Assembly: GCA_024655825.1 (NCBI GenBank)
Contig: JANLFJ010000003.1
Span: 1 to 64,000, forward strand
From: Peptococcaceae bacterium
GTDB taxonomy: Bacteria > Bacillota > Peptococcia > DRI-13 > PHAD01
Direction of reading: 5' to 3'
DNA length: 64,000 bases
The position numbers and the translations under genes are program-made. The notes under the pieces were generated by a model that saw only the letters and a list, made by a program, of their open reading frames with translations, had not been told where the DNA came from and searched no databases. Shown piece by piece: positions 1-57,522 of this stretch (position 1 is the first letter of the stretch; each line of letters starts with the position of its first letter).

Positions 1-353
1 TGAAACTTGCTTTTGGGCTCCAGGCAACGGTTGATGGCCATTACCTCTGCGAAGGGCAGGTCAGTAAAAAAGTTGTCCAGTCCCCAATACTGCCAGAAAT
101 GATGCAACAGCGCTACATCCAAAAACCGATAGTGGGTTTTGGCTACTACATCTGACAACCTACCAACAAACACATCTTCGTTTTGAGTAACCTTAAGGAT
201 CAGCCTGATTCGCTGGGCTTGGTTCTCGGTTAAAGACCCTAAATTCCAGATATTCCGGTGTTTAACCTTACCGTCTTCCCGATAAGATTCAGTCAGGGCA
301 TAGCTTTCGTAGACCTTGCCTTTAAAGGTTTTGGTAGCTCGTTTGAGGAACAT
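1..353 (-). CDS. IS1634/IS4-family transposase, N-terminal part (cut by window edge)
   Basis: An open frame runs from ATG at 353 to the window edge with no stop, giving 117 residues. A good ribosome site (GGAGG, 6 bases upstream) fixes the start. The protein begins MFLKRATKTFKGKVYESYAL and continues with a tract rich in basic residues, followed by GKVKHRNIWNLGSL. This resembles the N-terminal region of IS1634-type DDE transposases, which copy and paste or cut and paste their own element. The catalytic DDE domain would lie outside the window, so activity cannot be judged. It is on the same strand as the truncated istA into which it seems to have inserted. Confidence 0.65.
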   Translation of the reverse strand, partial: MFLKRATKTFKGKVYESYALTESYREDGKVKHRNIWNLGSLTENQAQRIRLILKVTQNEDVFVGRLSDVVAKTHYRFLDVALLHHFWQYWGLDNFFTDLPFAEVMAINRCLEPKSKF

Positions 354-37062: not shown

Positions 37063-38613
37063 TTATTTTGCGTAATCAACCGCTCTTGTCTCCCTGACGA
37101 CAACAACCTTTATCTGTCCAGGGTATTCAAGATTCTCTTCAATCTTTTTGACAATATCGCGCGCCATACGGACAGACGTGGCATCATCGATCTTTTCGGG
37201 TTTTACGATTATCCTTATTTCCCTGCCTGCTTGAATGGCATATGACTTCTCGACGCCTTCAAAAGCGTTAGCAATTTCCTCCAGCTTTTCCAAGCGTTTG
37301 ATGTACGCTTCGAGAGTTTCTCTTCTTGCTCCGGGCCGGGCTGCCGAAATGGCATCAGCGGCAGCCACCAGCACCGCTTCGATTGTTTGAAAAGGCTGGT
37401 CGCCGTGGTGAGCAGCAATCGCATGCACGACTTCGTATGACTCCCTGTACTTTTTGGCCAGGTCTGCCCCAATTGCGACGTGCGGCCCTTCAACTTCGTG
37501 GTCGACTGCCTTGCCGATGTCGTGCAACAACCCCGCGCGTTTAGCAACAGCCACATCCGCCCCTATTTCGGCCGCCATGATTTTAGCGAGATGGGACACC
37601 TCGATGGAATGTTTCAAAACATTCTGGCCGTAGCTTGTCCTGTATTTAAGCCGTCCCAGTATTTTGATGAGCTCCGGGTGCAGGCCGTTTACGCCAGTTT
37701 CAAACGTTGCCTGTTCGCCTTCTTCCCTTATTTTCTGTTCAATCTCTTTTTGTGATTTTTCAACCATCTCTTCTATCCGGGCGGGATGGATTCTTCCATC
37801 CTGGATCAGCTTTTCTAGGGCATTCCTGGCCACTTCCCGGCGAATAGGATCAAAACCTGAAAGTATTACGGCTTCCGGCGTATCATCAATGATCAGGTCA
37901 ATTCCCGTCAGGGTTTCCAAAGTCCTGATATTTCTTCCTTCTCGACCGATAATCCGTCCTTTCATTTCATCATTGGGCAGGGCGACAACGGAAACGGTTG
38001 ACTCGGCCACATGGTCGGCGGCGCAGCGCTGAATGGCGAGAGAGATAATATCCCGCGCCTTCTTTTCCCCTTCCTCTTTGGCCTTGTTTTCATATTCCTT
38101 TATTAACATGGCCGTTTCATGCTTGATTTCATCTTCTACCCGCGCCAGCAGTATTTCACGCGCCTGTTCAAAAGACAGATTAGATATTTTTTCCAGCTCA
38201 GACATTTGTTTTTGCAAAACTTCGGATAGGTTTCTTTTTTGGTGGTTTAATTCATGCTCCATTTTATGGAGCATCTCTTCTTTACGTTCGATTGAATCTG
38301 TCTTTTTATCAAGCGTTTCTTCCTTTTGCAGCAGTCGCCTTTCCAATCTCTGCAGTTCATTGCGCCGTTCTCTCATTTCCCTTTCGGCTTCCATACGGAA
38401 ACGGTGGGCTTCTTCTTTTGCTTCCAGAATCGCTTCTTTTTTCCTGGCTTCCGCGTTCCTTTTAGCTTCCTCCAGCAATTTCACCGCGGCTTCTTCCGCT
38501 GAGGCTATCTTTGCTTCCGCCGTCTTTTTTCTGACGATATACCCGGCAAAGGACCCGCAGGCAAGTGCCAGCAACGCTATAACAACATAGTAAAGAATCT
38601 TCTTCACCTCCAT
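37063..38613 (-). CDS. rny: Ribonuclease Y
   Basis: Membrane-anchored endoribonuclease that starts mRNA turnover. The protein has one N-terminal membrane helix ([20 protein letters not shown]), a long coiled coil (about 30-200, many KxAE/ERR heptads), a KH domain ([15 protein letters not shown], about 220) and the HD phosphohydrolase domain ([14 protein letters not shown], His-Asp at about 366). Length of 516 residues is normal. ATG 38613 has no ribosome site upstream, but GGAGGTG begins at its second base; an in-frame ATT nine bases further on (38598) is a possible alternative start. Confidence 0.96.
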
Positions 38614-38632
38614 CTTTATTATTTCGACTAAT

Positions 38633-38656
38633 AAAAAAAACCGAGTTAATTCGGTT
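38633..38656 (-). terminator. Small hairpin with T-run upstream of rny
   Basis: AACCGA and TCGGTT pair around ATTAAC on the minus strand, followed by TTTTTT. It lies 20 bases before the rny start within a 253-base gene-free gap (38614-38866) after recX. It could end the recA-recX transcript or act as a leader attenuator for rny. The remainder of the gap is AT-rich with no recognised feature. Confidence 0.6.
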
Positions 38657-38866
38657 ATTTTAAGCATCCATCATATCATTACCGCGGGTCAAGACCATAC
38701 TTAGCCCTCGGAGGGCAAAGCTGCATCTGGCTATACAAAACCCGTACCGGGATTTAAAGCTTATATATACTTTGAGTTAATATATATGCTAAAATCCAAC
38801 GATGGAGATTAAAACAACCGGATTTATCCATTATCATTCTAATATTTCTTGAAATAACTGTCAAGA

Positions 38867-53663: not shown

Positions 53664-55331
53664 TCATATTTCCATGATGATCGGCATCACCATAGGACGG
53701 CGGCCTGTTTTTTCATACAAGAACTTGCCAAGCGTTTCCTTGACCTGGGTCTTAATTGTCGTCCAGTCGGCTCCTCTTTTTTCAAAGCACCTGTCAACCA
53801 CCTCTTTGACGATCACCTTTGCTTCCTCAATCAGCTCCTCCGCCTCCCTGACATAAACAAACCCGCGGGAAACAATATCGGGTCCGGCAACCAAAAGGTT
53901 TGCCTCCTTGTTAATCGTCAGCACGGCAATAAGTATCCCTTCCTGGGACAGCTGCCTCCGATCCCGCAGGACAATGTTGCCGACATCCCCTACGCCGAGC
54001 CCGTCGATCAATACCCGCCCTGCTGTAACTTTCGGGCCAAACGAGCCTTTTGCCTTTGTAAATTCTATTACCTGACCGTTTTCGGCCACAAAAATGTTTT
54101 CTTTCGGGATACCCATTTGCTGGGCCAGTTTGGCATGTTTCACCAGGTGCCTGTATTCGCCGTGAACCGGCACGAAAAATTTTGGTTTAACCAGGTTGAT
54201 CATCATTTTCAACTCTTCCTGGCTGGCGTGCCCGGAAGCATGAATCCCGCTTACTGCCTCGTGCATCACATCTGCTCCCTGCCGGTAAAGCTGGTTGACA
54301 ATCCTGGCAACCAGCTTTTCATTCCCCGGAATGGGTGTCGCCGAGATGATCACCGTGTCGCCGGGAATAATTTCCACCCTGCGGTGATCGGACATGGCCA
54401 TTCTAGTCAAGGCCGACATGGGTTCTCCCTGGCTCCCGGTGGTGATAATCACTACCCGGTTCCGCGGATAATTGCCAAGCTCTTCCACCTCAACCAGCGT
54501 GCCCTCCGGGATAGTCAGGTAGCCCGTTTCCTGGGCGATGGAAGCGACGTTTACCATGCTCCTGCCCAGTATCGCCACCTTCCGGTTATACTTGTTGGCG
54601 GCGTTAATGACCTGCTGGATGCGATGGACATTTGAAGCGAATGTCGCCACAATTATGCGCTCTTTGGCCTGGCGGAAGGTTTCTTCAAAGGTCTGGCCGA
54701 CGACGCGTTCCGATGGCGTAACCCCTGGCCGTTCCACGTTAGTGCTGTCAGAGAGCATAACCAGCACGCCTTTTTCTCCATACTCGGCGATTCGCGCGAA
54801 GTCTGTTACGGCACCATCTACGGGTGTCTGGTCGAACTTAAAGTCTCCGGTGTGAAGCACTATGCCTTCGGGAGTATGGATCGCCATCCCTACAGGGTCG
54901 GGAATACTATGGCTTACCCTAAAAAACTCAACTTTGAAAAATGAACCAAGTTTCACTTTATCTCTGGGACGAACAGGGATAAGTTTAGCGTTGTTAATGT
55001 GGTTTTCTTTCAGTTTTCCTTGCAGTAGTCCCAGGGTCAGCCTGGTGCCGTACACCGGGGTATCAATTTCTTTTAAGACATACGGCAGTGCTCCGATATG
55101 GTCCTCGTGACCGTGTGTCAAAACTATTCCCTTGACCATCTCCTTGTTTTCCAGAAGGTAAGTGACATCAGGAATCACAATATCAATTCCCAGCATCTCA
55201 TCCTCTGGGAACATCAAACCAGAGTCAATCACCATTATTTCGTCGCCGTACCGCAAGACCATCATGTTTTTGCCGACTTCCCCCAGGCCGCCCAGGGGAA
55301 TCAGCATCAGTTTTCTTTCGTTATCTGCCAT
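53664..55331 (-). CDS. rnj: Ribonuclease J
   Basis: Beta-CASP metallo-lactamase nuclease with 5'-3' exo- and endonuclease activity, acting in RNA maturation and decay. The 555 residues have LTHGHEDHIGALPYVL (HxHxDH, 73-78), HTGDFKFDQTPVDG, LSDSTNVERPG and SGHASQEEL, and the C-terminal oligomerisation domain. ATG 55331 follows GAGGAGG. Position between dapA and tepA is that of rnjB in Bacillus; RNase J1 and J2 cannot be told apart here with certainty. A promoter and a leader hairpin lie upstream. Confidence 0.96.
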   Translation of the reverse strand: MADNERKLMLIPLGGLGEVGKNMMVLRYGDEIMVIDSGLMFPEDEMLGIDIVIPDVTYLLENKEMVKGIVLTHGHEDHIGALPYVLKEIDTPVYGTRLTLGLLQGKLKENHINNAKLIPVRPRDKVKLGSFFKVEFFRVSHSIPDPVGMAIHTPEGIVLHTGDFKFDQTPVDGAVTDFARIAEYGEKGVLVMLSDSTNVERPGVTPSERVVGQTFEETFRQAKERIIVATFASNVHRIQQVINAANKYNRKVAILGRSMVNVASIAQETGYLTIPEGTLVEVEELGNYPRNRVVIITTGSQGEPMSALTRMAMSDHRRVEIIPGDTVIISATPIPGNEKLVARIVNQLYRQGADVMHEAVSGIHASGHASQEELKMMINLVKPKFFVPVHGEYRHLVKHAKLAQQMGIPKENIFVAENGQVIEFTKAKGSFGPKVTAGRVLIDGLGVGDVGNIVLRDRRQLSQEGILIAVLTINKEANLLVAGPDIVSRGFVYVREAEELIEEAKVIVKEVVDRCFEKRGADWTTIKTQVKETLGKFLYEKTGRRPMVMPIIMEI

Positions 55332-55365
55332 TAAATACCTCCTCATATGTTTTATGAAATAGCAC

Positions 55366-55404
55366 AAAAAAAAACCTTCCCCATTCGTCCGCTCAGAAGG
55401 TTTT
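55366..55404 (-). terminator. Terminator hairpin in the ribonuclease J leader, candidate attenuator
   Basis: AAAACCTTC and GAAGGTTTT form a perfect 9-base stem with a 16-base loop, followed by TTTTT on the minus strand. It lies downstream of a strong promoter (55448-55476) and upstream of the rnj start, so transcripts for rnj must pass it. The preceding GGTTT (55419-55423) can pair with the AAACC of the left arm and could act as antiterminator. Confidence 0.75.
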
Positions 55405-55447
55405 CGATCATCAAGATTAAACCGATCCGACCAGCTACCCTGCGTAT

Positions 55448-55476
55448 ATTATAAACCAACAGGGTTTATATGGCAA
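55448..55476 (-). promoter_or_regulatory. Sigma-A promoter of rnj
   Basis: TTGCCA (55471-55476) and TATAAT (55448-55453) on the minus strand with a 17-base spacer, between the dapA stop and the leader hairpin. Confidence 0.85.
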
Positions 55477-55488
55477 GTGTTCGCAGAA

Positions 55489-56370
55489 TCATATTAATTC
55501 CAAATTTTCCATGGCCTTTTTAATAACCCTTGTTTCTTCCGGCGTGGCCTCGACCAGGGGAAGCCGCGGTTTCCCGGCAGGCAGCCCCAGCAGTGAGACC
55601 GCTTTTTTTACCGGAATAGGATTAGTAGTCACAAACATGGCCTTGTACAGCGGGAAAAGCCTCCGGTGAATCTGCCCGGCTTCTTCAATCCAACCTTTCA
55701 AATAAGAATAAATCATTTTATTCATCATCTTGCCAGCCACATGGCTGGCCACGCTGATCACGCCGTAGCCGCCTACGGCCATAATGGGCAGCGTCATGCT
55801 GTCATCGCCGCTGTATATTAAAAAGTTGTCGGGAATCATCGTCATTAAAGCTGAAACCTGGTCCATATTCCCGCAGGCCTCTTTCAGGGCGGTGATATTT
55901 GGTATACCGGCCAACCTGGCCACTGTTTCGGGAAGCATGTTCACTCCTGTCCGCCCAGGCACGTTGTATAGAATTACCGGCAGGTCGGTTGCTCCGGCTA
56001 CTGTCTTAAAATGCTGGAAAAGTCCTTCCTGGTTGGGCTTATTGTAATAAGGCGTCACGGCCATGATCCCGTCAACCCCCAATTTGGAAGCCTCTGCGGT
56101 AAGCCGGGCGCTTTCGATCGTCGAGTTGGAGCCGGTACCGGCAAAAACCCATCCCTTTTCTCCGACAGCATCCTTAATCGCCTTAAACAGGTCCAGTTTT
56201 TCTTGTTTCGATAAGGTCGGTGATTCGCCGGTGGTCCCACTTACTACCAAACCCTCGTTGCCGCAATCAAGCAGTTTAAGGGCCAATTGCTGCGCGCCCT
56301 CGTAATCCACTCTTTCATCGTCCTTGAATGGCGTAATCATAGCCGCTATCAAGCGGGGATATGCATTCAT
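55489..56370 (-). CDS. dapA: 4-hydroxy-tetrahydrodipicolinate synthase
   Basis: Condenses pyruvate with aspartate semialdehyde, the first step of the lysine/diaminopimelate branch. The 293 residues have VSGTTGESPTLSKQEKLDLF, VILYNVPGRTGVN (Tyr135) and ITALKEACGN with the Schiff-base lysine at about 163; GDDSMTLPIMAVGG and GVISVASHVAG follow. ATG 56370 has AAAGGAG upstream. It lies 20 bases after dapB, downstream of a lysine riboswitch; dipicolinate for spores also comes from this branch. Confidence 0.98.
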   Translation of the reverse strand: MNAYPRLIAAMITPFKDDERVDYEGAQQLALKLLDCGNEGLVVSGTTGESPTLSKQEKLDLFKAIKDAVGEKGWVFAGTGSNSTIESARLTAEASKLGVDGIMAVTPYYNKPNQEGLFQHFKTVAGATDLPVILYNVPGRTGVNMLPETVARLAGIPNITALKEACGNMDQVSALMTMIPDNFLIYSGDDSMTLPIMAVGGYGVISVASHVAGKMMNKMIYSYLKGWIEEAGQIHRRLFPLYKAMFVTTNPIPVKKAVSLLGLPAGKPRLPLVEATPEETRVIKKAMENLELI

Positions 56371-57245: not shown

Positions 57246-57279
57246 AACAAATAACGACTAAAGGTTAGACCTTTAGCCG
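57246..57279 (-). terminator. Lysine riboswitch terminator
   Basis: CGGCTAAAGGT and ACCTTTAGTCG form an 11-base stem (one G-U) with a 3-base loop on the minus strand, followed by TTATTTGTT. It lies between the lysine aptamer and the dapB start. Confidence 0.88.
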
Positions 57280-57311
57280 TGAACGCTTCCAGCCCCCCTC
57301 TCATGCCCTTC

Positions 57312-57490
57312 GTGAGATAGTGCTCCACCTGGCGCCTGGGCTGGTGCCGGGTGACAGTACTGCATCTGTTAAATGCAGTCCCAGCATAATAAACCGGCCG
57401 TTTACCATGCTTCGGCGGTTGCCCCTTTCCTCAAGGTCATTGCTGCCGCGCTTGCTGGAGTACTCTTGGCCACCGCAACCTCTACCCCAC
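57312..57490 (-). promoter_or_regulatory. Lysine riboswitch (L box) controlling dapB-dapA
   Basis: Read on the minus strand, the closing stem P1 pairs GTGGGGTAG (57482-57490) with CTATCTCAC (57312-57320). The conserved core follows the L-box order: AGAGG after P1, then AAGAGTA, then GAAAGGGG, then ACCGCCGAAGC, and later a hairpin built on ACTGCATTT/GATGCAGT next to GTCAC. Downstream comes a terminator and dapB. When lysine binds, P1 forms and transcription ends; without it dapB-dapA are made. Pairings were derived by eye. Confidence 0.93.
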
Positions 57491-57522
57491 CCTAGTTGAG
57501 TGAGGTATTATGTTTTTTTTAC

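What the first reader, a model, noticed from the sequence alone, without database searches (positions are those of the whole stretch)
55366..55476. Attenuator-like leader in front of ribonuclease J
A strong promoter is followed within 40-75 bases by a 9-base-stem terminator with a T-run, before the rnj ribosome site. An upstream GGTTT can pair with the terminator's left arm. The loop has a distinct 16-base purine-rich sequence. No known riboswitch or T-box motif is present. This might let RNase J levels control their own synthesis or sense a small molecule or antisense RNA.
Basis: partly seen in the sequence, partly recalled or inferred. Interest (0 to 1): 0.65.

Follow-up and report, generated by a model that had tools for sequence, protein, structure and literature searches.

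The report
Conserved regulatory leader of RNase J
The gene for RNase J, a main RNA-degrading enzyme of Gram-positive bacteria, starts with its own promoter and a short RNA leader carrying a repeated GNNCGG motif and, here, an early stop hairpin; the motif recurs in front of this gene in most Bacillota lineages sampled, Bacillus RNase J2 included, which points to an undescribed feedback control of RNA decay.

Summary
Independently promoted leaders occur before rnj throughout Bacillota. They share a single-stranded motif, GNNCGG, about 18-21 nt after the -10 box (predicted RNA position about +9 to +14), usually repeated downstream. GNNCGG ranks first of all short gapped patterns in two separate parts of 63-69 dissimilar leaders (z 13-14). 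The window leader has three copies; the third lies in the terminator loop, where it is invariant in 13 relatives of the order. Premature terminators are enriched (21/63 leaders; shuffles mean 0.9). In Bacillus the same element precedes rnjB. Rfam finds nothing; in the window's own genome the motif is not enriched behind promoters, and rnj is the only good case. The proposed antiterminator pairing (GGTTT/AAACC) is possible but not supported by covariation. Best explanation: an RNA-protein operator for feedback control of RNase J, read out by early termination here and near the ribosome site elsewhere. The binder is unproven; RNase J itself is the leading candidate.

The parts
55471..55476 (-). 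-35 box TTGCCA of the rnj promoter
   Evidence: TTGnnn-17-TATAAT conserved before rnj across the phylum
55448..55453 (-). -10 box TATAAT of the rnj promoter
55427..55432 (-). first GNNCGG copy (GGTCGG), predicted RNA position about +9 to +14
55422..55427 (-). second GNNCGG copy (GATCGG), sharing one G with the first
55396..55404 (-). left arm of leader terminator, AAAACCTTC
55389..55394 (-). third GNNCGG copy (GAGCGG) in the terminator loop; G..CGG invariant in 13 order-level leaders
55380..55395 (-). terminator loop TGAGCGGACGAATGGG
55366..55379 (-). right arm GAAGGTTTT and T-run of the terminator
55419..55423 (-).
55338..55344 (-). Shine-Dalgarno GAGGAGG of rnj
53664..55331 (-). rnj, RNase J family beta-CASP ribonuclease
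   Evidence: TIGR00649, 687 bits, cut-off 400
55489..56370 (-). dapA, the upstream neighbour on the same strand; ends 12 bases before the -35 box

Best explanation
The leader is a cis-acting RNA operator of rnj. Shown by comparison: an independent promoter, a GNNCGG motif at a nearly fixed place close to the predicted 5' end of the transcript, further copies of the same motif downstream on the sense strand, one of them in this genome presented in the loop of an intrinsic terminator, and association with rnj whatever the downstream layout. Inferred: an RNA-binding protein recognises the GNNCGG copies in the nascent leader and lowers rnj expression. In the window's lineage this would happen by favouring or stabilising the terminator, and in lineages with short leaders by acting near the ribosome site or on mRNA decay from the 5' end. 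The likeliest protein is RNase J itself (or the J1/J2 complex), giving negative feedback comparable to that of RNase E, PNPase and RNase III on their own leaders. The identity of the protein and the direction of the effect are inference, not shown.
For: GNNCGG is the top-ranked pattern both in the first 30 nt (54 vs 9.2 expected, z 14) and, independently, in the rest of the leader (64 vs 20.2, z 13.3) of dissimilar leaders. G at -3 is 94% though only CGG was used to align. The opposite-strand form CCGNNC is only weakly raised (16 vs 8.4, z 2.6, against 84 vs 24.8, z 13.3, for GNNCGG). The CGG is less paired than in shuffles (0.42 vs 0.33, p 4e-4). G..CGG is invariant in the terminator loop of 13 order-level leaders. 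Premature terminators are enriched (21/63 vs 0.9). Unrelated promoters in the fetched loci seldom carry the motif, and in the own genome TATAAT-N14-18-GNNCGG is not enriched (30 vs 33 in the reversed control), rnj being the only good promoter among them. The element is present at the dapA-rnj(B)-tepA locus of Bacilli without a terminator and in Paenibacillus-like leaders of about 360 nt. Autoregulation of decay ribonucleases through their leaders is established for rne, pnp and rnc (PMC3997798) and for rny (PMC10303841).
Against: No expression, TSS, term-seq or binding data were available. The binder is unknown; nothing here ties RNase J physically to the motif. A fixed distance from the -10 box also fits a DNA-level or promoter-proximal role for the first copy. 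After strict removal of related leaders, GNNCGG in terminator loops is only mildly enriched (6 of 21 vs 2.75 expected, maximum 6 in 200 shuffles). About 30% of leaders lack a perfect 5' GNNCGG (49/69 have it), though several have near variants such as GNACG. The rny upstream region has a modest excess of GNNCGG too (16 vs 6.4), so the motif may not be strictly rnj-specific.
Confidence: 0.5

Rival explanations
1. The GNNCGG copies are sites of a dedicated RNA-binding protein other than RNase J (for example a KH-domain protein such as KhpA/KhpB, or another decay-machinery component) that tunes RNase J in response to some state of the cell.
For: Repeated short single-stranded motifs are typical of RNA-binding-protein operators; the rny upstream region shows a modest excess of the motif, as a shared regulator would give.
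Against: Pattern searches give no wider regulon in the own genome or in class-level genomes. No candidate protein was tested. The CsrA consensus (ANGGA) does not fit, since the base after CGG at the first site is C or T more often than A.
Confidence: 0.3
2. A transcription attenuator with an RNA switch: the 5' segment (..CGG..GGTTT) pairs with the left arm of the terminator (AAACC..CTG) to form an antiterminator, controlled by a small molecule, an antisense RNA or the ribosome.
For: The pairing is possible in the window and the 7-pair helix keeps 89% of cells paired across 13 leaders, against at most 58% for slid versions; one family pairs ATCAGA with TCTGGT or TCTGAT (sequences).
Against: Pairing energy is no better than shuffles outside that family; shuffling gives covariation as high in 150 of 500 trials; leaders in other lineages have no terminator at all but keep GNNCGG.
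Confidence: 0.12
3. A promoter-proximal DNA element: the first GNNCGG is a downstream promoter, pausing or operator sequence acting on RNA polymerase, and the terminator simply insulates dapA from rnj.
For: The first copy lies at a nearly fixed distance (18-21 nt) from the -10 box.
Against: Extra copies downstream on the same strand at variable distances and in terminator loops; little enrichment on the opposite strand; relatives have separate hairpins after dapA and keep the leader terminator.
Confidence: 0.08

Closest known systems
E. coli rne 5' UTR (RNase E autoregulation by direct binding to a leader stem-loop; PMC3997798 and its ref. 153)
   Same: Leader of the gene for a main mRNA-decay enzyme with conserved recognition elements; feedback by the enzyme is the proposed function.
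   Different: RNase J is not homologous to RNase E; the element here is a short repeated single-stranded GNNCGG near the 5' end, with a terminator in some lineages; autoregulation is not shown.
RNase Y autoregulation in B. subtilis (PMC10303841)
   Same: A Gram-positive decay ribonuclease thought to adjust its own mRNA, partly through its 5' UTR.
   Different: There control is by cleavages in the UTR and early ORF; no conserved motif like GNNCGG is reported in the passages read.
Protein-dependent transcription attenuators (e.g. TRAP/trp, ANTAR/eut)
   Same: Repeated short recognition elements in a leader with an intrinsic terminator, some in hairpin loops.
   Different: The motif GNNCGG differs from TRAP (GAG/UAG) and ANTAR elements; no antiterminator is supported; many leaders have no terminator.
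CsrA-regulated leaders (ANGGA in loops; consensus from general knowledge)
   Same: Short motif with GG, in loops and single strands, in several copies, often near the ribosome site.
   Different: The consensus is GNNCGG with a required C before GG and no requirement for a following A at the first site.

Membership tests
Known Rfam cis-regulatory RNA or riboswitch | match to a curated covariance model | tested here: not met
   No match on the window leader up to E 5; the only hits in the 4.5 kb around it are the lysine riboswitch upstream of dapB and one sub-threshold chance hit; none on 20 related leaders up to E 1.
T-box leader | specifier stem and T-box antiterminator sequence | tested here: not met
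   No Rfam hit; leader only about 75 nt up to the end of the terminator.
Transcription attenuator | intrinsic terminator between promoter and start codon | tested here: met
Transcription attenuator | mutually exclusive antiterminator conserved by covariation | tested here: inconclusive
   possible helix, no covariation beyond shuffles
Transcription attenuator | regulated read-through | not testable with these tools
   needs term-seq or reporter fusions
CsrA-type operator | ANGGA core at the sites | tested here: not met
   Position after CGG is C 39%, T 27%, A 24% at the first site; G three before C in 94%.
Autoregulatory ribonuclease leader | own-leader element associated specifically with the ribonuclease gene | tested here: met
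Autoregulatory ribonuclease leader | the ribonuclease binds or cleaves its leader and lowers its own expression | not testable with these tools
   no binding or expression data

The most novel reading that the evidence does not exclude
RNase J (or the J1/J2 complex) recognises repeated GNNCGG motifs in the 5' leader of its own mRNA, an ancient feedback operator found across Bacillota that acts through premature termination in some lineages and near the ribosome site or 5' end in others. To my knowledge it would be the first sequence-specific RNA recognition described for RNase J.
Probability: 0.35. Interest if true: 0.85.

Novelty: new variant of a known kind. Interest (0 to 1): 0.66.

Why it matters
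RNase J sets the pace of 5'-to-3' RNA decay in Gram-positive bacteria, yet the open-access papers searched here describe no control of its synthesis. A leader motif shared across Bacillota, including Bacillus rnjB where genetics is easy, makes the question of how cells set RNase J levels directly testable, and may reveal a new RNA-recognition rule (GNNCGG).

Tried and rejected
Ordinary dapA terminator: rejected as sole explanation, because relatives have a separate hairpin after dapA. Known riboswitch or T-box: no Rfam match. CsrA sites: the consensus does not fit. GGTTT/AAACC switch: not supported by pairing energy or covariation. A wider regulon: pattern searches for TATAAT-N-GGTNCGG, -TGGTNCGG and -GNNCGG in the own genome and 46 class genomes gave background numbers apart from rnj. 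Second rnj paralogs (L118-L120) mostly lack the element (L118 has CGG close to its -10 box; L119 and L120 do not have it). RNAalifold on the order-level alignment gave no significant consensus fold, partly because the right terminator arm is misaligned. Literature: seven searches of the open-access library found no description of this leader; subscription papers and preprints were not covered.

Full report
What is there. The finding lies on the minus strand. Downstream of dapA (55489-56370) a near-consensus promoter (TTGCCA-17-TATAAT, 55476-55448) is followed by a leader, an intrinsic terminator (stem AAAACCTTC/GAAGGTTTT, loop TGAGCGGACGAATGGG, nine T) and then the ribosome site and ATG (55331) of an RNase J gene. 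The MFE fold contains the hairpin, but the leader as a whole folds only slightly better than shuffles (z -1.25). dapB further upstream has a lysine riboswitch; Rfam finds nothing in the rnj leader.

Related leaders. The rnj upstream regions were collected from the order (25 genomes), the class, a spread over the phylum, and public assemblies. Promoters of the form TTGnnn-16..18-TATAAT, nearly all with a 17-base spacer, were found in 109 leaders, 94 after removing near-duplicates. CGG begins 12-21 nt after the -10 box in 68 of the 94, most often 18-20 nt. Aligned on CGG alone, the base three before the C is G in 94%, which defines GNNCGG. If transcription starts about 7 nt after the -10 box, this is about +9 to +14 of the RNA; start sites are not mapped here.

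The motif is repeated. Downstream of the first site, GNNCGG occurs 84 times against 24.8 (sd 4.5) in dinucleotide shuffles; the reverse form CCGNNC 16 against 8.4. With stricter removal of related leaders (69 left, 63 long enough for the downstream test), GNNCGG ranks first of all tested patterns of one base, a gap of 0-3 and three bases, in the first 30 nt (z 14) and independently in the rest (z 13.3). CGG within the motif is less paired than CGG in shuffles (0.42 vs 0.33, p 4e-4). The window leader has three copies, GGTCGG, GATCGG and GAGCGG (0.52 expected, P 0.008). In 13 order-level leaders the G..CGG of the terminator loop is invariant while the two bases between G and C vary.

The terminator. 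Terminator-like hairpins occur in 21 of 63 dissimilar leaders against 0.9 (maximum 3) in shuffles. Their arms differ entirely between lineages, so it is the hairpin rather than its sequence that is kept. In the order the leader terminator is retained where a separate hairpin lies between dapA and the rnj promoter (L003, L009, L010, L014, L015), so it is not just the end of dapA. The loop is not always where the motif lies: 6 of 21 loops have GNNCGG, 2.75 expected.

Beyond the class. In Bacilli the gene between dapA and tepA is the RNase J2-type gene; its leader carries TATAAT-N-GGACGGG (or GGTGCGGG) about 15 nt before the ribosome site, without a terminator (L340, L342, L343, L335, L339, L348), while the J1-type copies in the same genomes lack it (L329-L331). 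That the gene is rnjB is inferred from synteny and my knowledge of B. subtilis. Paenibacillus-like rnj genes have the element at the head of leaders of about 360 nt.

Specificity. In the own genome TATAAT-N14-18-GNNCGG gives 30 matches, 33 for the reversed control, and only rnj has a good -35 box at the right place together with extra copies. In the 46 class genomes TATAAT-N8-17-TGGTNCGG is at background apart from rnj. Among promoters found in all fetched loci, those with the motif are mostly rnj promoters missed by the first filter; the rest are few, and several of them were brought in by the pattern search itself. The rny upstream region shows a modest excess (16 vs 6.4), pnp none clear (9 vs 6.5), rnj of the same order 38 vs 6.8.

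The alternative pairing. Across 12 relatives the pairing energy of the 5' segment with the left arm is near that of shuffles (mean z -0.8; positive in L006, L007 and L008); only family f8 is consistently low. RNAalifold suggests a 7-pair helix joining CGG..GGT to ACC..CTG; 89% of cells pair, slid versions reach 58% at most, but the covariation score is reached by 150 of 500 shuffles. Since these columns are already constrained by the motif and the arm, the test is inconclusive and leans against a conserved switch.

How it most likely works. Repeated short single-stranded sites on one strand, in leaders of very different layout, fit an RNA-binding protein better than a riboswitch or an RNA switch. 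Because the element follows one gene, feedback by its product is the simplest idea, as known for RNase E, PNPase and RNase III (PMC3997798) and RNase Y (PMC10303841). The protein, the direction of control and the read-through step are inferences. A separate RNA-binding protein is the main rival.

Limits. Most genomes are metagenome assemblies without names in the search tool; start sites and termination are predicted; literature was limited to the open-access library.

Noticed in passing
window 38584-38840, minus strand: The rny (RNase Y) gene (37066-38583) also has a leader conserved in many order relatives (L264-L287): an ACGGGT..ACCCGT pairing segment, then a terminator-like AACCGAG..CTCGGTT with T-run before the ribosome site; no convincing Rfam match.
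   Followed up: partly
window 57310-57492, minus strand: Lysine riboswitch (RF00168, 106 bits) in front of dapB, followed by a terminator at 57254-57280.
   Followed up: yes
L340, L342, L343, L335, L339, L348 (about 70 nt upstream of the J2-type gene): The same GNNCGG leader element sits before the RNase J2-type gene in Bacilli, at the conserved dapA-rnj-tepA locus (tepA not found by the search in L339), while the J1-type gene lacks it.
   Followed up: yes
L231 141-560, L315, L316, L319 (minus or plus as rnj): Paenibacillus-like rnj genes have leaders of about 360 nt that begin with AAGTGACTGGGTGCGGT, strongly conserved; the rest of these long leaders was not examined.
   Followed up: no
L020, L163, L165, L169, L170, L181 leaders; L184, L189, L191, L209, L212 leaders: Two groups of rnj leaders have their own terminator types (ACCGGGCCGGC..GCCCGGT and ACCTACCTT..GAGGTAGGT), several of them with 5' variants GAACGT or GGGAACG instead of GNNCGG.
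   Followed up: no
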